From Candidatus Saccharimonadota bacterium (GTDB lineage Bacteria; Patescibacteriota; Saccharimonadia; Saccharimonadales; Saccharimonadaceae), in the NCBI GenBank assembly GCA_017514025.1, contig JAFWLB010000003.1, forward strand, positions 217,063-281,062: a DNA stretch of 64,000 nt. Direction: 5' to 3'. The position numbers were made by a program, and so were the translations under genes. The notes under the pieces were generated by a model. That model was not told the origin of the DNA and did not search any database. It saw only the letters and a list, made by a program, of their open reading frames with translations. Shown piece by piece: positions 38,312 to 47,372 of the stretch. Within the stretch, counting starts at the first letter, position 1, and the number at the start of each line of letters is the position of its first letter.

Positions 38312-38388
38312 TGGTCGGGGCTAGGAGATTTGAACTCCTGACCTCACGCACCCCATGCGTGCGCGCTACCGGGCTGCGCCAAGCCCCG
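38312..38388 (-). tRNA. tRNA-Pro (GGG)
   Basis: Minus-strand cloverleaf with anticodon stem CACGC/GCGTG, loop ATGGGGT, anticodon GGG, T loop TTCAAAT and encoded CCA. Confidence 0.95.
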
Positions 38389-38396
38389 AAAAATAA

Positions 38397-38482
38397 TGGT
38401 CAGGGTGATCGGACTTGAACCGTTTACGAGCGAAGCGAAGTTCCGGTTCCCAGCTCGATGCGCCCAATTTGAGCCACTAACG
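38397..38482 (-). pseudogene. tRNA-Pro 3'-end fragment with unrelated 5' sequence
   Basis: Positions 38397-38422 are identical over 26 nt to the 3' end (CCA, acceptor strand and T arm) of tRNA-Pro(CGG) at 38483-38508. The remaining 60 nt do not form the rest of a tRNA and contain GAGCGAAGCGAAG-type sequence. The fragment lies between two intact tRNA-Pro genes. It looks like a leftover from recombination or element integration at a tRNA 3' end. Confidence 0.7.
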
Positions 38483-38558
38483 TGGTCAGGGTGATCGGAC
38501 TTGAACCGACGACCTCAGCGTCCCGAACGCTGCGCGCTACCAACTGCGCCACACCCTG
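38483..38558 (-). tRNA. tRNA-Pro (CGG)
   Basis: Minus-strand cloverleaf with anticodon stem CAGCG/CGCTG, loop TTCGGGA, anticodon CGG, T loop TTCAAGT and encoded CCA. Confidence 0.95.
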
Positions 38559-38564
38559 AAAATG

Positions 38565-38640
38565 TGGTCTGGGTGACTGGACTTGAACCAGCGACCTCGA
38601 CTTCCCAAAAGTCGCGCGCTACCAACTGCGCCACACCCAG
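38565..38640 (-). tRNA. tRNA-Pro (TGG)
   Basis: Minus-strand cloverleaf with anticodon stem CGACT/AGTCG, loop TTTGGGA, anticodon TGG, T loop TTCAAGT and encoded CCA. A TATAAT box upstream (about 38648-38653) probably drives all three tRNA-Pro genes. Confidence 0.95.
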
Positions 38641-38850: not shown

Positions 38851-38859
38851 TGTTATAAT
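38851..38859 (+). promoter_or_regulatory. Extended -10 promoter of the DGR template RNA
   Basis: TGTTATAAT, an extended -10 (TG at 38851-38852, TATAAT 38854-38859). No good -35 is seen, as is usual for extended -10 promoters. A start near 38866 would give the template RNA a leader of about 180 nt. No other plus-strand gene starts before the template. Confidence 0.65.
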
Positions 38860-39045
38860 CATAGTGAGCTACTGGCGGCATACTCGATTTGACTCCAAGC
38901 TAGGCATCGAGTCTAACCGACCGGTAGAAAAGGGGCATTGGGACGGGTACACTCTTGTAATTTAGGCATAAGTCTATTTTGAGGAGTCCAAACGCCTGAG
39001 TGGTCGATATCAGGTATCTAGCTACCCTGAAAGCACAGTCTATGA

Positions 39046-39313
39046 TTGTTCTTCGCCCGCGGAGGCAACGTCAATGGTACTACCTTCAACGGTGGCGCTA
39101 GCGGCGGCTACTGGTGGTCTAGCTCGGTCAACTCCACGACTAACGCGTACAACGCCAACTTCAATGGTAGCAATATTAACTCCGCCAACAACAACAATCG
39201 CAACAACGGTAGGTCCGTCCGCTGTATAGTCCGCTAGCCCTTAAGGCCAGCGGCCGGCAGCTTCGGTCTCGCTCTAGCGTCGCTGTTTCTGCTTTTCCCC
39301 AGCGAATGCCCCT
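39046..39313 (+). repeat. DGR template repeat (TR)
   Basis: 268 bp aligned without gaps to 41468-41735 (reverse strand). In the 192-bp coding part there are 18 differences, 17 at template adenines: mostly AAC and AAT codons here read TAC, AGC, TTC, CTC, ACT or AGT in the target. One is not (G at 39212 is T in the target). Past the stop codon 76 bp are almost identical, with one G/C difference at 39304. The asparagine-rich open frame here (GGNVNGTTFNGG...) is the template's image of the target, not a gene. It lies on the strand opposite to the RT. Confidence 0.96.
39232..39279 (+). other. Cruciform-capable element after the TR stop codon
   Basis: CGCTAG (39232-39237) and CTAGCG (39274-39279) form a 6-bp stem enclosing GGCC-AGC-GGCC. 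The same sequence follows the variable region at 41502-41549. A hairpin just 3' of the variable region is a known aid to DGR retrohoming in the Bordetella phage system; here it is present in both copies. Confidence 0.55.
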
Positions 39314-39318
39314 CTCAT

Positions 39319-40566
39319 CTAAAATTCTTTGCCGCTCATCTCCAATATCAATTCCCGAATAGGACGATGTAGCGGCTTTTTTACTTCCAAATATATTTCA
39401 AAATCCCAGCCCAACTCCAGAAACACCTTCCGCACAAAATTGTCCGCATCCATATGTCTGATGTGTCCAAAATACGAAATCACCGTTTCCATCCTTCCTT
39501 TTCCATTGTCAAAATCATACACTGCCTTCCGAAATTTCGCCTGCAATCTATCCGAAGGATACAAACAATGTGGATAAATCCGAGCGCCTAAAAACGACAT
39601 CCCTTTATACACGCTTTGACAATAACGTTTTTTGGGGTGCAAGACCAATCCCATTTCTTTCAAAAATTTCTCAATCAACTTAATATCCCGTTTTAATTTT
39701 GGATAATCCTCCTCTGCCACCATGATATAGAAATCGTCCACATACCTCCCATAATATTTATACCCCAAAACCTCCGTAACAAACTTATCCAACGCGTCTA
39801 AGTAAGCATTCGAGGATAACTGCGAAGTTAAATTTCCAATCACAATCCCTTGTCCTTCGGGTTGGCAATAAAGACTTTTTCTTGGCGGCAACAAATCCGG
39901 ATCCCAATTCGACAAATTACCTTTCTTTCGCGCCTTCACCACCGGATCATCCATGATCACTTTCTCCCACAAAAACTTACAAGTCGCAAACAATTTTTCT
40001 GCCGCTGCTCTTCCTCTATATGGTGCAAACTGTTTTTCCAACCCCTTCATTAGTGCCTCATATAATTCTTCTCTCGGTAACCCCATGAAATATCCAGAAA
40101 TATCCAATTTGACTACTATTGCTTTTTTTATTCCGTCTTCCGTCACTTCTAACATATGCCACTGAGCTTTCCTTATTGCATACAATGTTCCTTTTCCTGG
40201 CCGACAAGAAGTCGACGTATCAATAAACTGTTCATCCCACCAACCAGCCGTCATATTATATAAAAAATGGTGCGTAGATCTATCCCGAAATGGTGCCGCA
40301 AAAATTTCTCGTACCATCGGCTCAAACACCACAAATGCTATAGACGATCCTGGTTCATAAGTTCTTTCTTCAATAGTTTTCGCTAAATTCTCAATATTTT
40401 CCGCCCAGTTCAAATCAAACTCATGTTCATCGTGCGTGCCTCTTTTTCCTTTCCGTGCTTCACCAAACGCCCTAGTCATTTCATCTACCAGCCAATTATG
40501 AAACCCTTTCGCGTCAATCTCGTCAAAAATCCACGGCAAATTAGGTGGTTGCTTTGGTTTCTTCAT
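39319..40566 (-). CDS. DGR reverse transcriptase
   Basis: 415 aa. RT motifs in order: REIFAAPFRDRSTHHFLYN (about 86-104), motif A KLDISGYF with Asp155, the DGR-specific IGNLTSQ (243-249) in place of the retroviral/group II QG motif, catalytic YVDD (275-278), then HPKKRYCQSVYKGMSFLG. The SQ motif is the hallmark of error-prone DGR enzymes that misincorporate opposite template adenines. It overlaps the accessory gene by 26 bases and is co-transcribed with it. Its stop is only 5 bp from the end of the convergent template repeat. The C-terminal region (about 330-415) is the thumb. Confidence 0.97.
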   Translation of the reverse strand: MKKPKQPPNLPWIFDEIDAKGFHNWLVDEMTRAFGEARKGKRGTHDEHEFDLNWAENIENLAKTIEERTYEPGSSIAFVVFEPMVREIFAAPFRDRSTHHFLYNMTAGWWDEQFIDTSTSCRPGKGTLYAIRKAQWHMLEVTEDGIKKAIVVKLDISGYFMGLPREELYEALMKGLEKQFAPYRGRAAAEKLFATCKFLWEKVIMDDPVVKARKKGNLSNWDPDLLPPRKSLYCQPEGQGIVIGNLTSQLSSNAYLDALDKFVTEVLGYKYYGRYVDDFYIMVAEEDYPKLKRDIKLIEKFLKEMGLVLHPKKRYCQSVYKGMSFLGARIYPHCLYPSDRLQAKFRKAVYDFDNGKGRMETVISYFGHIRHMDADNFVRKVFLELGWDFEIYLEVKKPLHRPIRELILEMSGKEF

Positions 40567-41410
40567 TTCCTTGTTCCTCCTTTTCCTTCATAACTTTTAC
40601 TAAATTCTTATCTGCTAACTTTTTTAGTTGCGTTACCATATCAAAAGCTCTTACACAAACTTCCAATGACCACAACCCCGCAATCTCAATTATCTGTATC
40701 TCATATTTTAAACGATAAAGCTTCTTTCGGATGTTCTTCCAATCCTCAATCCTCTCATCTATATTTTTCTTTGACAATTCCGTCGAATGTAAATAATCCG
40801 CCATCGTCTCATCCATCAGCGTAATCATCCTTGCGCCATTCGTCTGACTAGACAATTTATCTAATTTGCTCGAGCAAATTCTGTGAAATCTTTTGATCAT
40901 TTCTGACAAATCCCGGTAAAATAATGGATCGGAATGCTCTACTAACACCGTCCGATTCAACATCAATCTTCGTCTTGCTTCCTTTTCCCTCAACTGTTTC
41001 ATCCGGTCTCGCGTAAACGGTTTTTTCAACATAAAAACTAATCTGCCATGGATCACATGCTCACCACCATACATATTCACTTTCTTCAATCGCTCACGCA
41101 CCGTATCCGTTCCTCTCGTCCTAATCCGACCTATTTTATACTGTTCGTAAAAACTATCATAGTCATCTTCAAATCTTACATTTTTCACCTTCAAAACTTG
41201 GCAAACATAATAGTAGTAAATCAACGCCGAACTGTCTGCAATTTCAAACCAATCTCCCTTTCCGGCACATTTCTGCATAATAATTTCTTCCGTGTTTTCC
41301 TCCTCCACTCCAATCAAATCCCGTTTCAAGGCACGATACGTCTTGCGATCAAACTCCTGTTCCTCAAGCTCTCTTGCTTTTTCGAGTGTTCTATTGTCTA
41401 CTTCTGTCAT
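40541..41410 (-). CDS. DGR accessory protein, possibly Avd-like, with large N-terminal extension
   Basis: 289 aa, directly upstream of and overlapping the RT gene. The C-terminal 120 residues are predicted helical (DLSEMIKRFHRI..., WKNIRKKLYRLKYE..., AFDMVTQLKKLADKNLVKV), fitting the four-helix bundle of Avd proteins that bind the RT and template RNA. Avd is normally about 110-130 aa. Here about 165 extra residues precede it, with motifs NMYGGEHVIHGRLVFMLKKP and basic RDRMKQLREKEARRR, which could contact RNA. I do not recognise this N-terminal domain. No clear Shine-Dalgarno site is present. Confidence 0.6.
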   Translation of the reverse strand: MTEVDNRTLEKARELEEQEFDRKTYRALKRDLIGVEEENTEEIIMQKCAGKGDWFEIADSSALIYYYYVCQVLKVKNVRFEDDYDSFYEQYKIGRIRTRGTDTVRERLKKVNMYGGEHVIHGRLVFMLKKPFTRDRMKQLREKEARRRLMLNRTVLVEHSDPLFYRDLSEMIKRFHRICSSKLDKLSSQTNGARMITLMDETMADYLHSTELSKKNIDERIEDWKNIRKKLYRLKYEIQIIEIAGLWSLEVCVRAFDMVTQLKKLADKNLVKVMKEKEEQGNEETKATT

Positions 41411-41467
41411 TTTTTTAGCTTATTTCATTTCAATCATTATTTTTTCTCGGCTCCAGTTCATCGTTTC

Positions 41468-41735
41468 AGGGGCATTGGCTGGGGAAAAGCAGAAACAGCG
41501 ACGCTAGAGCGAGACCGAAGCTGCCGGCCGCTGGCCTTAAGGGCTAGCGGACTATACAGCGGACGGACATACCGAGGCTGCGATTGTAGTTGAGGGCGGA
41601 GTAAATACTGCTACCAGTGAAGTAGGCGTAGTACGCGTTAGTCGTGGAGTAGACCGAGCTAGACCACCAGGAGCCGCCGCTAGCGCCACCGCTGAAGGTA
41701 GTACCACTGACGAAGCCTCCGCGGGCGAAGAACAA
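41468..41735 (-). repeat. DGR variable repeat (VR) at the 3' end of the target gene
   Basis: Reverse-strand copy of the template repeat. It covers the last 63 codons of the target, the stop at 41544 and 76 bp beyond. Fourteen codons differ by adenine substitution from the template, all in the lectin-like face (residues such as TTC, TAC, CTC where the template has AAC). The flanking GC-rich part with SVRCIVR is conserved, fitting the initiation of mutagenic homing at the 3' end. Confidence 0.96.
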
Positions 41736-43568
41736 CGGTGCCTGACGAATATTTAGGAAGCCATCCGTGGCAAAACTCGTAGCGGTAAGGCTACTAGTAA
41801 TACCAGCAGCTCGCCACAATTCGCCAAATTCACGAGTGGTAGCCGTATCAGTTGCAGCTCGTCCCTTTGGTAATCTCCAGCCCTTTGGGCAGATGGAATT
41901 ATCCGCTGTTTTGTAACGATCACTGGTAGAGGAATAAATACTGCTTGAAGCACTACTAGCAATCGCTGCCGTCCAGTTATAATAATTGCCTACACGATAG
42001 TGCGCACATTCCTCTTTAGTATGACCGCCAGTAGTAGTACATTCGCTCAGGGAACCATAAATAGTGTCCAAAGTGGACGTATCAGACGAACCAGACGTAT
42101 AGACATAATGATCATCGCCTTCAGCCATATAAGGTTTATTATTATCATTTGTCCAACCAGACAGCGAATTAGATGGACTACCACTAGTAAAGTTGGTAAT
42201 AGTGGCCGGAGTGCCAGTGAGCGTATTGTTGGTAGCGCTACCAGACGGCGTAATGTTAGTAGGGTTCGGCGACCAAGTGATTACACCATTACTCGTAGAA
42301 TAATCTGTCACATAAATACCCGAGCCAGAAGTAGTAATATCAGTGTTTTCCGATGTCAGCGCTGCTACGCCCGTCCCACCAATGTTTAAATCCAAATTCT
42401 GTGTCATCCAGATATTACCATCCGCCAACTTCGCCACACAATAAGGTTTTTCATCTCGTTTGTCTTTCAAAACATATTGTATATTTTGCGCCATATTGCT
42501 AAGAACCGTGGCTTTATTAGAGCTAGTAATATCTTGCATATAAGTGATACCGACGTTTGGAATAGCTGTGGTACAGGCCGCCACATCAGGCCCTGCCTGC
42601 TTCCAAATCGCATACAGAGAAATATTATTGCTACTAGAAGTCTGGTTTAGGTTATAAGTATCGCCCGCCGCATAAGTCGTGCCAGTACAAGCATCGCTAC
42701 TCGTAGTCACGCTACACCAACCTTCAAAAGTATACCCATCTCGACTCGGCTCCGTGCTAGACAGAGTAATTCCCTCCGTCGCCGACGTGCCGTCCGTTAT
42801 ATCGCTCGGCATCCCCGTCGCCTCGCCACTATTGTCTACATAATACAGTTTATACGGCGTTGCATTCGCCACTACCTCAAACACAAAGGTGTTAGAATAA
42901 GCTTCCATCGCCGTAGTTATGTCCGCCCTCGCTCCGATTGACACCGTATAAGTCCTACCCTGATTATCACTCGTCGTGTCCATCGGATCTCCATTTGCGG
43001 TCGGCGAAGCGAAATAATAATTATCTGTCGTGTTATCTACCGAATTGTGTTTGCTCGGTTTATATCCCCAATAACCATTACAATCCGCTGTATCAAAATC
43101 ACTCGCGTTGATCCCGCTCGGACAATCATTGCTCGTCCCCAAAGTCTGAAATCCTACCGTCCCACCACTTGTATTCAAGCTAGTTGGATTCGAAGCACCC
43201 GTGGCCCTTGCACTCAAAGCATAACCTGCTGCATGCGTGGTAGTCACCGTGATATTCACGTTCCCACTATCCGCAAACTTCCCACCTGCCGTAGGCGGCA
43301 AATTGATCGTAGGGTTGCCCGAAATCCCCACGCTCAATGTAGACGGTATAGCATAAGTATCTGAAGCGCCTAAAAAGACCGGCAATGCCAAAACCGCCAA
43401 AGCCGAAACCAAAGTCAGAATAAGACCAGTGAAAGTGCTAGTAGCTTGCTTGTTGGTTGTTGTTTTGTGGTCCATTAAAGTAGTCTGAACGCTGTCTCCT
43501 ACGCTCCGACTAGACCTCCTACTAGCACTTTCACTAAACTTATGCTGAACTGCTTTGATTTGAGACAT
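41544..43568 (-). CDS. DGR target: secreted surface protein with variable C-type-lectin-like domain
   Basis: 674 aa from MSQIKAVQHKFSES, chosen because GGAGGT lies 3 bases upstream; an ATG 24 codons earlier is possible. Layout: charged N-terminus, membrane/signal segment (about 45-70, FTGLILTLVSALAVLALPVF), a Thr/Ser/Asn-rich beta domain, an InlB-type repeat (YTFEGWCS...ISLYAIW, about 270-325), then a FISUMP/formylglycine-enzyme-like lectin fold (YCVAKLADGNIWMTQNLD..., ICPKGWRLP, WWSSSVYS, SVRCIVR). The last 63 codons are the DGR variable repeat. It probably displays a diversified binding face on the cell surface; the ligand is unknown. A long folded 5' leader precedes it. Confidence 0.92.
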   Translation of the reverse strand: MSQIKAVQHKFSESASRRSSRSVGDSVQTTLMDHKTTTNKQATSTFTGLILTLVSALAVLALPVFLGASDTYAIPSTLSVGISGNPTINLPPTAGGKFADSGNVNITVTTTHAAGYALSARATGASNPTSLNTSGGTVGFQTLGTSNDCPSGINASDFDTADCNGYWGYKPSKHNSVDNTTDNYYFASPTANGDPMDTTSDNQGRTYTVSIGARADITTAMEAYSNTFVFEVVANATPYKLYYVDNSGEATGMPSDITDGTSATEGITLSSTEPSRDGYTFEGWCSVTTSSDACTGTTYAAGDTYNLNQTSSSNNISLYAIWKQAGPDVAACTTAIPNVGITYMQDITSSNKATVLSNMAQNIQYVLKDKRDEKPYCVAKLADGNIWMTQNLDLNIGGTGVAALTSENTDITTSGSGIYVTDYSTSNGVITWSPNPTNITPSGSATNNTLTGTPATITNFTSGSPSNSLSGWTNDNNKPYMAEGDDHYVYTSGSSDTSTLDTIYGSLSECTTTGGHTKEECAHYRVGNYYNWTAAIASSASSSIYSSTSDRYKTADNSICPKGWRLPKGRAATDTATTREFGELWRAAGITSSLTATSFATDGFLNIRQAPLFFARGGFVSGTTFSGGASGGSWWSSSVYSTTNAYYAYFTGSSIYSALNYNRSLGMSVRCIVR

Positions 43569-43759
43569 ATGACCTCCATTAATGTTTATGTCCCTAGCTA
43601 GCACAAAAACGGCACCGCAAGGGTGCATCATCTCAACCATTTCACCAAAGCAGGCTAATCAGTCTCGACTCCTCACGGTGCCATTATTACTGATCAGCAA
43701 GCTTCGATGAAACGAAAAACTGCTTTGATAAATAATTGAAATGATGCATTACCATTATA
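43569..43759 (-). promoter_or_regulatory. Promoter and structured 5' leader of the DGR target gene
   Basis: TATAAT (minus strand, 43754-43759) gives a start near 43747 and a leader of about 180 nt. The leader's first 28 nt (43720-43747) are an imperfect inverted repeat of 43625-43653. GGCACCG (43676-43682) pairs with CGGTGCC (43611-43617), which lies outside that helix, so both together make a pseudoknot; the second stem is followed by GTTTTT, like an attenuator. A local GCACC/GGTGC hairpin competes. It matches no riboswitch class I know. Confidence 0.6.
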
Positions 43760-43787
43760 CCATACTTTTGGCCGCGTCAACCACTTT

Positions 43788-45824: not shown

Positions 45825-47372
45825 CTAGATACCTGTGAGCGGCACAATATCTGCCCCCAAATGCCTCAACCTCGCCGCAAAATCCTGATATCCCCGGTTG
45901 ATCGGATAGACATTACGCAAAATCGATTTCCCCGGCGCCGCCAACATCCCGATCAGCACTACCACTGCCGGCCGAAGCGCCTGCGGCGCCACGAGTTCCG
46001 CCGGTCGCCAATTTGTCGGCCCTTCAATATACACCCGGTGCGCGTCTAGCAGCTCCACCTTCACATTCAAATTCGCCAGTTCCGTCGAATATACCGCCCG
46101 ATTTTCAAACACCCAGTCATGAATCAACGTTCGCCCCTTACTAACAGCTGCAATTACCGAGAAAAACGGCAAATTATCAATATTTAGTCCCGGGAATGGC
46201 ATCGGGTGGATTTTGTCCACCGGCGCCACCAAATCAGATTTTTTAATCGTCAAATCCACTAGCCGCGTCCGCCCGTTCGCCGACGCATATTCCGGCGAAA
46301 GCTCAAACTTCGCATTCATGCTCTTCAAAACTTCGAGCTCAATCTCCAAAAACTCAATCGGCGCCCGGAGCAACGTGATTTCCGAATGCGTCACCAGCGC
46401 CGCCGCGATGAAACTCATCGCCTCAATCGGGTCTTCCGAAATATTATAGTCCACATCCAAATTAAACCGCGGCCTCCCCCGCACCCTCAAAGTGGTCGTC
46501 CCAATCCCCGCAATCTTCACTCCCATTTTTTCCAAAAAGAAACAAACGTCCTGTACCATATAGTTCGGCGAAGCTCCCACGATCGTTGTCTCCCCCGGCG
46601 TCATCGCCGCCGCCATCAACACATTCTCCGTCACCGTATCACCCCGCTCCGTCAGCACAATATAACGCTCCCCCTCTTTTAGCACCTTTTGATTCACTTC
46701 CACTTCATAAAAACCCGGATTTTTCTCCGCATCCACTTTCAAACCAAAACTTTCTAGCGCCTTGAGATGCGGCTCCACCGTCCGCGTCCCTAGCGAACAT
46801 CCCCCCGCATAGGGAATCTGGAATTTCTTGTATCGATGCAACAAAGGCCCCAAGAACATAATAATCGACCGCGTCCGCCGCGCTGCTTCTACGTCCATCT
46901 CGTCTAATCTCAATTCGCGTGGTGATATAATTTCTAAGTCACGATGGCGATTTGTCCAACGGCATTTCACCCCGATCGACTCCAAAACTTCAATAATCCG
47001 AAAAACTTCCTCAATCCGCGCAATTTTATGTAACACGGTCTTACCGGTATTCAAAAGCGATGCACAAAGCAGCGCCACCGCCGCATTTTTTGACGTGTTG
47101 ACAGTAATCTCACCAGACAATTCCTTCCCGCCCCTAATCCGAAAACTCTCTGTAGCTGAGTCATTTATCGAGAGAATTTGCTTCCCCAGCGCCTCAGATA
47201 GTTTTTTCACCATAGTTAGTGAAATATTTTGTCCACCTTTTTCAATCCGGTGGATTGCCGACTGGCTAGATCCGACCGCATTTGCCAGCTCTTCTTGCGT
47301 CCACCCCTTTTCTAGCCGCATATGCTCGACCGTCTCGCCAATCACTTGTTGATAAGTTTTTGCCTTTGCCAT
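45825..47372 (-). CDS. murA: UDP-GlcNAc 1-carboxyvinyltransferase MurA fused to an N-terminal HTH domain
   Basis: 515 aa. Residues about 7-62 are an XRE/Cro-type helix-turn-helix (RLEKGWTQEELANAVGSSQSAIHRIEKGG). From about 77 the EPT fold of MurA follows: NTSKNAAVALL, catalytic Cys192 in AGGCSLGTRTVEPH, and LTERGDTVTENVLMAA. MurA adds enolpyruvate to UDP-GlcNAc, the first committed step of peptidoglycan synthesis. Normal MurA is about 420 aa with no DNA-binding domain, so the fusion suggests an enzyme that also regulates transcription. It is one continuous frame. The start lies six bases after TATAAT (leaderless). Confidence 0.93.
   Translation of the reverse strand: MAKAKTYQQVIGETVEHMRLEKGWTQEELANAVGSSQSAIHRIEKGGQNISLTMVKKLSEALGKQILSINDSATESFRIRGGKELSGEITVNTSKNAAVALLCASLLNTGKTVLHKIARIEEVFRIIEVLESIGVKCRWTNRHRDLEIISPRELRLDEMDVEAARRTRSIIMFLGPLLHRYKKFQIPYAGGCSLGTRTVEPHLKALESFGLKVDAEKNPGFYEVEVNQKVLKEGERYIVLTERGDTVTENVLMAAAMTPGETTIVGASPNYMVQDVCFFLEKMGVKIAGIGTTTLRVRGRPRFNLDVDYNISEDPIEAMSFIAAALVTHSEITLLRAPIEFLEIELEVLKSMNAKFELSPEYASANGRTRLVDLTIKKSDLVAPVDKIHPMPFPGLNIDNLPFFSVIAAVSKGRTLIHDWVFENRAVYSTELANLNVKVELLDAHRVYIEGPTNWRPAELVAPQALRPAVVVLIGMLAAPGKSILRNVYPINRGYQDFAARLRHLGADIVPLTGI

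What the first reader, a model, noticed from the sequence alone, without database searches (positions are those of the whole stretch)
38851..43760. Complete diversity-generating retroelement in a reduced (CPR-like) genome
Seen directly: a 268-bp template repeat (39046-39313) and a variable repeat (41468-41735), with 17 of 18 coding differences at template adenines affecting 14 codons. An RT with IGNLTSQ and YVDD, an accessory gene overlapping it, and a secreted target with a lectin-like C-terminus complete the set. DGRs are an established class; this instance has several unusual parts listed separately. The element could generate surface variants for host or prey attachment.
Basis: partly seen in the sequence, partly recalled or inferred. 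Interest (0 to 1): 0.95.

Follow-up and report, generated by a model that had tools for sequence, protein, structure and literature searches.

The report
RNA-guided gene-diversifying retroelement in Saccharibacteria
A tiny Saccharibacterium carries three complete copies of a natural gene-diversifying machine, and beside the template of each one lies a short sequence complementary to the end of the gene to be diversified, which likely acts as a built-in RNA guide telling the machine which gene copy to rewrite and which to leave alone.

Summary
Window 38864-43640 encodes a complete diversity-generating retroelement (DGR) of a Saccharibacteria genome (679 kb): RT, a two-domain Avd-type accessory protein, a FISUMP target, and a 268-bp TR/VR pair with 17 of 18 coding differences at template adenines. 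The genome has two more complete DGRs; in all three the TR lies on the strand opposite to the RT. That inverted order, rare in older surveys, is the rule in this clade (68 of 69 relatives, 24 of 26 held-out loci). New: the leader upstream of TR holds a segment (8-15 nt in half of the loci) complementary to the 3' end of its own VR, far beyond cross-locus matching (68 loci, z 18.5, 0 of 20,000 permutations; 26 held-out loci, z 10.4). At 62 TR/VR-differing positions the segment pairs with the VR base 49 times and the TR base 9 times; in 14 of 56 loci it runs at least 3 bp into VR-only flank. In the window it pairs 11 bp with VR, 9 with TR. I propose that the leader is primer and guide: it starts cDNA on TR and matches the product to VR, not TR. 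Complementarity is shown; the mechanism is inferred. New variant of a known kind.

The parts
38854..38859 (+). TATAAT, extended -10-like sequence before the TR leader (candidate promoter for a separate TR transcript)
   Evidence: Seen. A simple scan for -10-like sites upstream of guides was not discriminating in the clade (39 of 47 sense, 33 of 47 antisense), so this is a candidate only.
38864..39045 (+). 5' leader of the TR RNA (predicted non-coding; strand opposite to RT)
   Evidence: Aligned with 9 relatives; no Rfam match to this stretch; its folding energy alone does not exceed shuffles (z -0.46).
38869..38878 (+). 5' strand of stem P1 before the guide (partner 38917-38927)
   Evidence: In the MFE fold of the window; in 39 loci with a guide (window included) the 20 nt before it complement a segment 30-110 nt upstream more than across loci (z 5.6, 0 of 20,000).
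38931..38941 (+). Guide segment AGGGGCATTGG, complementary to the VR 3' end
   Evidence: 11 contiguous pairs with VR (41468-41478), 9 with TR (39305-39313). Own VR only: 11 against at most 4 for the other two DGRs of the genome.
38942..38953 (+). Motif directly after the guide (consensus RRNRRNNYMMYY; one departure in the window)
   Evidence: 38 of 47 loci with a VR run of 8 or more fit it with at most one departure right after the guide, against 2.0% of other leader positions (the consensus comes from the same loci).
39046..39313 (+). Template repeat (TR) with IMH*-like 3' end
39319..40566 (-). DGR reverse transcriptase, 415 aa (IGNLTSQ, YVDD)
   Evidence: Pfam RVT_1 E 1.9e-10; PHROG 1423 reverse transcriptase E 1.3e-67.
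40541..41410 (-). Accessory protein, 289 aa: N-terminal alpha/beta domain plus C-terminal Avd-like four-helix bundle
41468..41735 (-). Variable repeat (VR) at the 3' end of the target gene
41468..41478 (-). IMH-like site CCAATGCCCCT paired by the guide (C where TR has G)
41544..43640 (-). Target gene, 698 aa from the first ATG (an ATG at 43568 has a ribosome-site-like GGAGGT before it, by eye), List-Bact repeat and FISUMP C-terminus
   Evidence: TIGR02145 E 6e-14, TIGR02543 E 5e-5.

Best explanation
This is a complete diversity-generating retroelement of a Saccharibacterium whose template repeat lies on the strand opposite to its reverse transcriptase and has, in its upstream leader, a short segment complementary to the 3' end of the variable repeat, which likely serves as both primer and guide so that the mutated cDNA would be written into the target gene and not back into the template. 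Shown: all DGR parts; adenine-biased TR/VR differences; inverted order across the clade; a leader segment that fits VR better than TR where the two differ, fits its own VR and not others, continues in part of the loci into VR-only flank, and is followed by a shared motif. Inferred: (1) a separate TR transcript is made from the strand opposite to RT; (2) the guide pairs imperfectly with the TR 3' end in that RNA and cDNA starts at or next to the purine that follows the guide, as reported for an adenine in the Bordetella spacer; (3) the resulting guide-RNA/cDNA strand anneals to VR, where guide and cDNA form one continuous duplex; (4) the TR mismatches at the guide's end keep TR from being a recipient; (5) the outcome is a varied lectin-type surface protein.
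For: Parts and adenine bias. Orientation: TR opposite to RT in 68 of 69 loci with a TR/VR pair, of 83 examined, and in 24 of 26 held-out loci with a pair, of 33 examined. Complementarity of leader to own VR end: mean longest run 8.21 against 5.87 cross-locus, z 18.5, 0 of 20,000 permutations, 68 of the 69 loci; held-out 8.00 against 5.76, z 10.4, 0 of 20,000, 26 loci. VR run longer than TR run in 37 and 14 loci, shorter in 16 and 6, equal in 15 and 6. At 62 TR/VR-differing columns in 58 loci the guide pairs the VR base 49 times, the TR base 9, neither 4; runs of 3 bp or more into VR-only flank in 14 of 56 loci (2.2% with other loci's flanks, 0 of 20,000). Motif after the guide in 38 of 47 loci with at most one departure, background 2.0%. 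The leader beats every other 320-nt window of its locus in 31 of 94 loci and is in the top 5% in 43. The region downstream of TR shows no signal in 32 distant loci (z 0.5). Three guides of one genome each match only their own VR. In BPP-1 the spacer stretch AGGTGGTCA, nucleotides 48-56, is fully complementary to the VR IMH and only 5 nt match TR; PMC12875486 (passages) says an internal spacer adenine primes cDNA at IMH*.
Against: No experiment: no transcript, cDNA start or retrohoming was seen. 47 of 94 loci lack a VR run of 8 nt or more (truncated TR/VR detection or a leader over 320 nt may explain some, not tested). TR itself is complementary above chance (z 10.3). In the VR-anchored register 7 of 56 loci run 3 bp or more into TR-only flank instead of VR flank (list), and in L118, L127, L136 and L161 the guide's 5' part fits the TR flank, so the segment is partly tuned to TR. 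The phage set is not significant (n 15, upstream VR z 1.6), and the BPP-1 spacer has two other 9-nt complements in the VR downstream hairpin region, so generality beyond CPR is not shown. The window leader does not fold better than shuffles; the promoter scan is not discriminating.
Confidence: 0.6

Rival explanations
1. The leader segment pairs only with the TR 3' end inside the template RNA, as the primer helix for cDNA synthesis; complementarity to VR is a by-product of TR/VR similarity and of past copying.
For: TR complementarity is above chance (z 10.3 in 68 loci, 5.4 in 26 held-out); TR is the better partner in the distant CPR set (TR z 5.1, VR z 3.1); 7 of 56 loci run into TR-only flank in the VR-anchored register; an RNA homoduplex in the RT active site is recalled from the abstract of Handa 2025 (paper not held).
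Against: Where TR and VR differ the segment fits VR 49 to 9, and in 14 of 56 loci it continues into VR-only flank, which TR does not contain; in the TR-anchored test, runs into TR-only flank are at chance (2 of 34; 3282 of 20,000 permutations as high).
Confidence: 0.22
2. The complementarity is real but works at the DNA level or in transcription, for example as an inverted repeat linking target 3' end and TR leader, or antisense pairing of leader RNA with the target mRNA end to control expression.
For: In 14 of 69 loci VR and TR lie on one strand downstream of the RT, 0.2-1.0 kb apart; the leader could pair with the target mRNA 3' end in the same way.
Against: In the window and in most relatives (VR on the RT strand in 55 of 69) RT and accessory lie between VR and leader; the segment ends next to a shared motif and inside the stretch where TR and VR differ.
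Confidence: 0.1
3. An ordinary DGR of the known inverted type with nothing new: chance or shared ancestry produced the leader matches.
For: Half of the loci show no run of 8 or more; inverted DGRs are in print (PMC3521204, section 15).
Against: Cross-locus permutation, held-out set, within-locus windows and downstream control all speak against chance; shared ancestry raises cross-locus matches and so works against the result.
Confidence: 0.05
4. A decayed DGR: the TR/VR differences are old and the machine is no longer active.
For: No population data; one non-adenine coding difference.
Against: RT, accessory and target frames are open and the catalytic residues intact; three DGRs in one small genome keep 51 of 52 coding differences at adenines.
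Confidence: 0.05

Closest known systems
Bordetella phage BPP-1 DGR (Rfam RF03022 Phage_DGR spacer RNA; Avd; IMH/IMH*)
   Same: RT, Avd-type bundle, adenine-mutated target, IMH/IMH* difference at the repeat end, and an RNA segment outside TR complementary to the VR IMH.
   Different: In BPP-1 TR, VR and RT share a strand and the priming spacer is 3' of TR; here TR is on the other strand and the complementary segment is 5' of TR. Avd there is a lone bundle of about 128 aa; here the bundle is fused to an N-terminal domain.
Inverted DGRs of Shewanella, Vibrio and Photobacterium (PMC3521204, section 15)
   Same: RT on one strand, TR on the other.
   Different: There target and VR are also on the TR strand and only three cases were reported; here VR is on the RT strand in 55 of 69 loci and the TR is convergent with the RT 3' end across the clade.
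Rfam RT-15 RNA (RF03018), leader 5' of TR in Pseudomonas, Shewanella and Burkholderia phage DGRs
   Same: RNA family directly 5' of TR; 7-nt VR-matching stretches in L189 and L192.
   Different: The window leader does not match the model; the TRs of these phages are on the RT strand; the phage set alone gives no significant guide signal.
DGR clade 2 of Roux et al. 2021 (PMC8144416, passages), RTs restricted to Patescibacteria/CPR
   Same: CPR-encoded, cellular; RT family likely the same.
   Different: No orientation or guide feature is described in the passages seen ('orientation' and 'strand' do not occur in its text); placement in clade 2 was not tested.
Retron msr-msd RNAs
   Same: Priming strand upstream of the template in one RNA, if the proposed mechanism is right.
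   Different: Clear TR/VR pair and target gene here; a likeness in layout only (recalled; msr and effector genes were not searched for).

Membership tests
Diversity-generating retroelement | Reverse transcriptase with intact catalytic YxDD and DGR-type motif | tested here: met
   YVDD invariant and IGN..SQ invariant in 15 RTs; PHROG RT family E 1.3e-67.
Diversity-generating retroelement | TR/VR pair with differences concentrated at TR adenines | tested here: met
   17 of 18 coding differences; 1491 of 1598 over 69 loci.
Diversity-generating retroelement | VR at the 3' end of a target gene with C-type-lectin-like fold | tested here: met
   FISUMP domain TIGR02145 E 6e-14; the link of FISUMP to the lectin fold is recalled, no structure was predicted.
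Diversity-generating retroelement | Avd-type accessory protein | tested here: met
Diversity-generating retroelement | IMH / IMH* difference at the 3' end of VR and TR | tested here: met
   One G/C difference at position 259 in the window; small differences in many relatives, none in some (L005, L137, L149, L153).
Diversity-generating retroelement | Stem-loop just downstream of VR (helps, not strictly required in BPP-1) | tested here: not met
   Best stem 3 bp in the window; 18 of 94 loci have 6 bp or more, shuffled 2.1%. Not strictly required according to PMC12875486 (passages).
Diversity-generating retroelement | Mutagenic retrohoming in vivo | not testable with these tools
   No reads or experiments.
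Canonical (BPP-1-type) DGR cassette | TR on the same strand as RT with priming spacer 3' of TR | tested here: not met
   TR opposite to RT; the 3' spacer part was tested only as complementarity in 32 distant loci (none).
Rfam RT-15 RNA | Covariance-model match above the gathering score | tested here: not met
   No match in the window.
MutS domain I (N-terminal part of the accessory protein) | Sequence or fold match to MutS domain I | tested here: inconclusive

The most novel reading that the evidence does not exclude
DGRs are RNA-guided: the template RNA carries its own guide/primer segment whose pairing with the target's IMH, and mispairing with the template's IMH*, explains both where cDNA is written and why the template is spared. 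In Saccharibacteria the segment sits in a 5' leader on the strand opposite to the RT, pairing in part of the loci across the repeat boundary into target-only DNA; in the Bordetella prototype it would be the spacer stretch ending at the priming adenine.
Probability: 0.45. Interest if true: 0.92.

Novelty: new variant of a known kind. Interest (0 to 1): 0.8.

Why it matters
How mutated DGR cDNA is integrated into its target is described as still unknown (PMC12875486, passages). A guide written in the template RNA makes that question directly testable by compensatory base swaps, would explain the long-known IMH/IMH* differences, and would let a targeted mutagenesis tool be re-aimed by changing about ten bases. 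It also bears on why very small genomes keep three or four separate diversifiers (four with TR/VR pairs in G281 and in G312): guides that fit only their own target, as the three tested here do, would let them run side by side.

Tried and rejected
Promoter: a -10 scan before the guides was not discriminating (39 of 47 sense, 33 of 47 antisense), so I claim no promoter. RNA fold: the window leader's energy is like shuffles. Rfam: no family for the leader. A second, 17-nt match to the TR end elsewhere in the genome lies in an alpha/beta-hydrolase-like gene (by eye) and is taken as chance. FISUMP genes at contig ends were looked at as further VRs: one search lists no TR match there, and contig C4 is a 99.98% duplicate of a piece of C2. 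A first genome-contig scan with the single RT found nothing; the second, with an alignment, gave 80 named loci. Accessory protein: no match for the window's protein in Pfam, NCBIfam or PADLOC and only weak ones (E 0.086 and above) in PHROGs; sequence search of solved structures gave only weak hits, no Avd (best E 0.006). Avd and MutS proteins were not sought by other sequence means. My first, cruder test against TR ends also gave a signal (0 of 10,000) and was superseded. Guide positions in my idea note are off by six bases; the report's coordinates are re-read. A MutS-domain-I reading of the accessory N-terminus stays a lead.

Literature: the listings of searches and the passages that I read show no description of a guide-IMH match; but Handa 2025, Naorem 2017, Wu 2018, Paul 2017 and Handa 2021 are not held, so prior mention there cannot be excluded. 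The A56 priming site and the Handa abstract are recalled; a 'MutS-like' DGR accessory gene in print is recalled from Wu 2018 and was not found by one search.
Full report
WHAT IS THERE. The window (part of a 679-kb, 97% complete genome in 7 contigs) holds, on the minus strand, a target gene (43640-41544), an accessory gene (41410-40541) overlapping the RT gene (40566-39319), and on the plus strand a template repeat (39046-39313) that ends 5 bp from the RT stop codon. TR and VR (41468-41735) differ at 19 of 268 positions, 17 of them TR adenines. Of 47 adenines in the 192 coding bases (stop codon included) 17 are changed; the template could encode of the order of 1e26 protein variants (one search gives 3e26, which counts changes of the stop codon).

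THREE DGRs IN ONE SMALL GENOME. A search with the RVT_1 family finds three RTs in the genome. The two others are also complete: contig C5, 21 of 21 differences at adenines in a 223-bp pair; contig C6 near 132 kb, 13 of 13 in 189 bp. With the window this is 51 of 52 coding differences at adenines. All three targets have FISUMP C-termini and all three TRs lie on the strand opposite to the RT. In the same genus 38 of 60 genomes sampled have an RT match, several with three or four matches, some of them split hits; in the family 82 of 295; in the phylum 119 of 379. Several DGRs per genome are already reported for CPR bacteria (PMC10907252, passage) and nanoarchaea (PMC4372165, passages), so the number alone is not new.

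WHO IT IS. An RT-profile scan of named species genomes kept the best 80 of 380 relatives: 78 are titled Candidatus Saccharibacteria, many from ruminant gut, and 2 are Ca. Nanosyncoccus alces contigs.

CONSERVED INVERSION. From the listed matches I took 80 long RT matches (a dozen or so weaker long ones and the partial or split ones were left out) and fetched about 6 kb on each side where the contig allowed; with the genome's own three this makes 83 loci. A script looked for ungapped repeats whose differences sit at one copy's adenines. 69 of 83 have such a pair; 14 do not. TR is on the strand opposite to the RT in 68 of 69 and downstream of the RT, convergent with it, in 67 of 69; exceptions are L100 and L158. 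VR is on the RT strand in 55 of 69 and on the other strand in 14. Over these loci 1491 of 1598 differences are at TR adenines. The inversion is a clade feature: in 17 more distant CPR loci with a pair (20 fetched) TR is opposite to RT in 5 and on the same strand in 12, and it is on the same strand in all 16 phage loci with a pair, BPP-1 included (17 examined). Inverted DGRs were known from three cases in 2012 (PMC3521204, section 15 read), and a 2019 survey puts an RT-inverted pattern more than 20 times rarer than the canonical one (PMC6642488, passages).

THE GUIDE. While reading the leaders upstream of TR and the TR/VR ends, I saw that a leader segment is the reverse complement of the repeat's 3' end, and that where TR and VR differ there it usually fits VR. 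To test this, I took the longest Watson-Crick run between each leader (up to 320 nt upstream of TR) and the VR end (-14 to +6 around the end of TR/VR identity), and compared it with the same leader against every other locus's VR end. 68 of the 69 loci could be used (L114 has too little sequence upstream). Mean 8.21 own against 5.87 cross; z 18.5; 0 of 20,000 permutations as high. For TR ends: 7.01 against 5.81, z 10.3. VR beats TR in 37 loci, loses in 16, ties in 15. A combined VR+TR register score puts 42 of 68 loci above the 95% and 24 above the 99% level of cross-locus pairs.

HELD-OUT TEST. Of the 80 named loci, 33 share at most 20% of 16-mers with the first set's RTs and with each other; 26 have a TR/VR pair (7 do not). 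The same statistic, unchanged, gives 8.00 against 5.76, z 10.4, 0 of 20,000; TR 6.92 against 5.83, z 5.4; VR better in 14, worse in 6, equal in 6. TR is opposite to RT in 24 of 26; L244 and L268 differ.

WHY VR AND NOT ONLY TR. With the pairing register chosen by the longest run with either VR or TR (ties go to VR), 58 of 94 loci have a run of 8 or more. In them 62 columns of the last 12 shared positions differ between TR and VR (adenine-type differences in the outer three positions left out): the guide pairs the VR base in 49, the TR base in 9, neither in 4. In 56 loci a run of 6 or more with VR in the shared part reaches the repeat's end; in 14 of these it goes on for 3 or more bases into flank found only at VR, against 2.2% when flanks are exchanged between loci (0 of 20,000). 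In the same register 7 of the 56 go on for 3 or more bases into TR-only flank instead (L004, L104, L118, L138, L161, L223, L247; counted from the list, no permutation). With the register set by TR, 2 of 34 go into TR-only flank, at chance (3282 of 20,000). In the window, the guide AGGGGCATTGG (38931-38941) pairs 11 bases of VR (41468-41478) and 9 of TR; the break is the single G/C difference at position 259. So the segment looks two-sided: mostly tuned to VR, in some loci also to the TR flank.

OTHER SUPPORT AND CONTROLS. 47 of 94 loci have a VR run of 8 or more. The 12 bases after it fit RRNRRNNYMMYY without departure in 23 and with at most one in 38 of the 47, against 0.2% and 2.0% at other leader positions; the consensus was made from the same loci. 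The 20 nt before the guide pair with a segment 30-110 nt upstream (z 5.6, 39 of the 47 loci usable). Within each locus, the leader beats all other 320-nt windows on both strands in 31 of 94 loci and is in the top 5% in 43 (about 100 windows per locus). The three guides of this genome are specific: 11, 8 and 13 for the own VR, at most 4 for the others. In 32 more distant loci (17 CPR, 15 phage including BPP-1; near-identical L190 left out) the region downstream of TR shows nothing (VR z 0.5, TR z -0.9), the region upstream does (VR z 3.7, TR z 5.1), carried by the CPR loci (VR z 3.1, TR z 5.1); the phage subset alone is not significant (VR z 1.6, TR z 1.0).

THE PROTOTYPE. In BPP-1 the spacer 3' of TR contains AGGTGGTCA at nucleotides 48-56, fully complementary to TGACCACCT in the VR IMH, where TR reads TGCCCATCACCT and matches only 5. 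That the priming adenine is A56 is recalled (Naorem 2017, Handa 2018); PMC12875486 says an internal spacer adenine primes cDNA within IMH* (passages). Two other 9-nt complements of the spacer fall in the hairpin region after VR, and a 9-nt one lies upstream of TR, so this is suggestive only. The BPP-1 spacer is Rfam RF03022, and five of the ten phage loci scanned carry RT-15 (RF03018) directly 5' of TR, so a 5' leader RNA is known as a family; the window's leader matches none.

HOW IT LIKELY WORKS. Template RNA would be transcribed opposite to the RT. The guide, held after stem P1, would pair with the 3' end of TR and offer its end as primer; RT with the accessory protein would copy TR with adenine errors. 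The product, guide RNA joined to cDNA, would be complementary without a break to VR across the IMH, but not to TR, whose altered bases at the guide's end break the duplex. This would give direction (TR to VR) and target choice. Steps after the sequence evidence are inference.

VERDICT. DGR: established kind. Conserved convergent inversion with an own leader, an Avd-like bundle fused to a second domain, and above all a VR-matching guide in the TR leader: a new variant. The strongest reasons for caution are that pairing with TR as primer and pairing with VR as guide are hard to separate by sequence alone, that half of the loci give no run of 8, and that key structural papers could not be read.

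Noticed in passing
window 38312-38640: Cluster of three tRNA-Pro genes (ggg, cgg, tgg) beside the DGR; between the first two lies a stretch (about 38396-38482) that repeats the 3' part of a tRNA-Pro gene (by eye) but is not called as a tRNA.
   Followed up: no
window 45825-47372: ORF that reads as an XRE-type helix-turn-helix fused to a MurA-like enolpyruvyl transferase (by eye).
   Followed up: no
L112, L113, L114, L118, L127, L134, L136, L138 (accessory ORFs): In these relatives the accessory protein begins with what looks like an XRE-type helix-turn-helix (by eye), so the Avd-like protein seems to change partners; these members were not in the alignment or the models.
   Followed up: no
L036 4685-5317, L037 29-661, L038 166-807, L039 160-822: FISUMP genes or gene pieces without a detected TR, three of them at contig ends; contig C4 is a 99.98% duplicate of part of C2, and C6 and C7 share their first 141 bases, so assembly breaks fall in these genes.
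   Followed up: partly
VR downstream flanks of 94 loci: A stem of 6 bp or more lies within 35 nt after VR in 18 of 94 loci (3 of 94 after TR, 2.1% in shuffles), like the BPP-1 stem-loop; the window has none.
   Followed up: partly
L158, L244, L268, L100: Rare relatives with TR on the RT strand (L158, L244, L268); L100 has an opposite-strand TR upstream of the RT.
   Followed up: no
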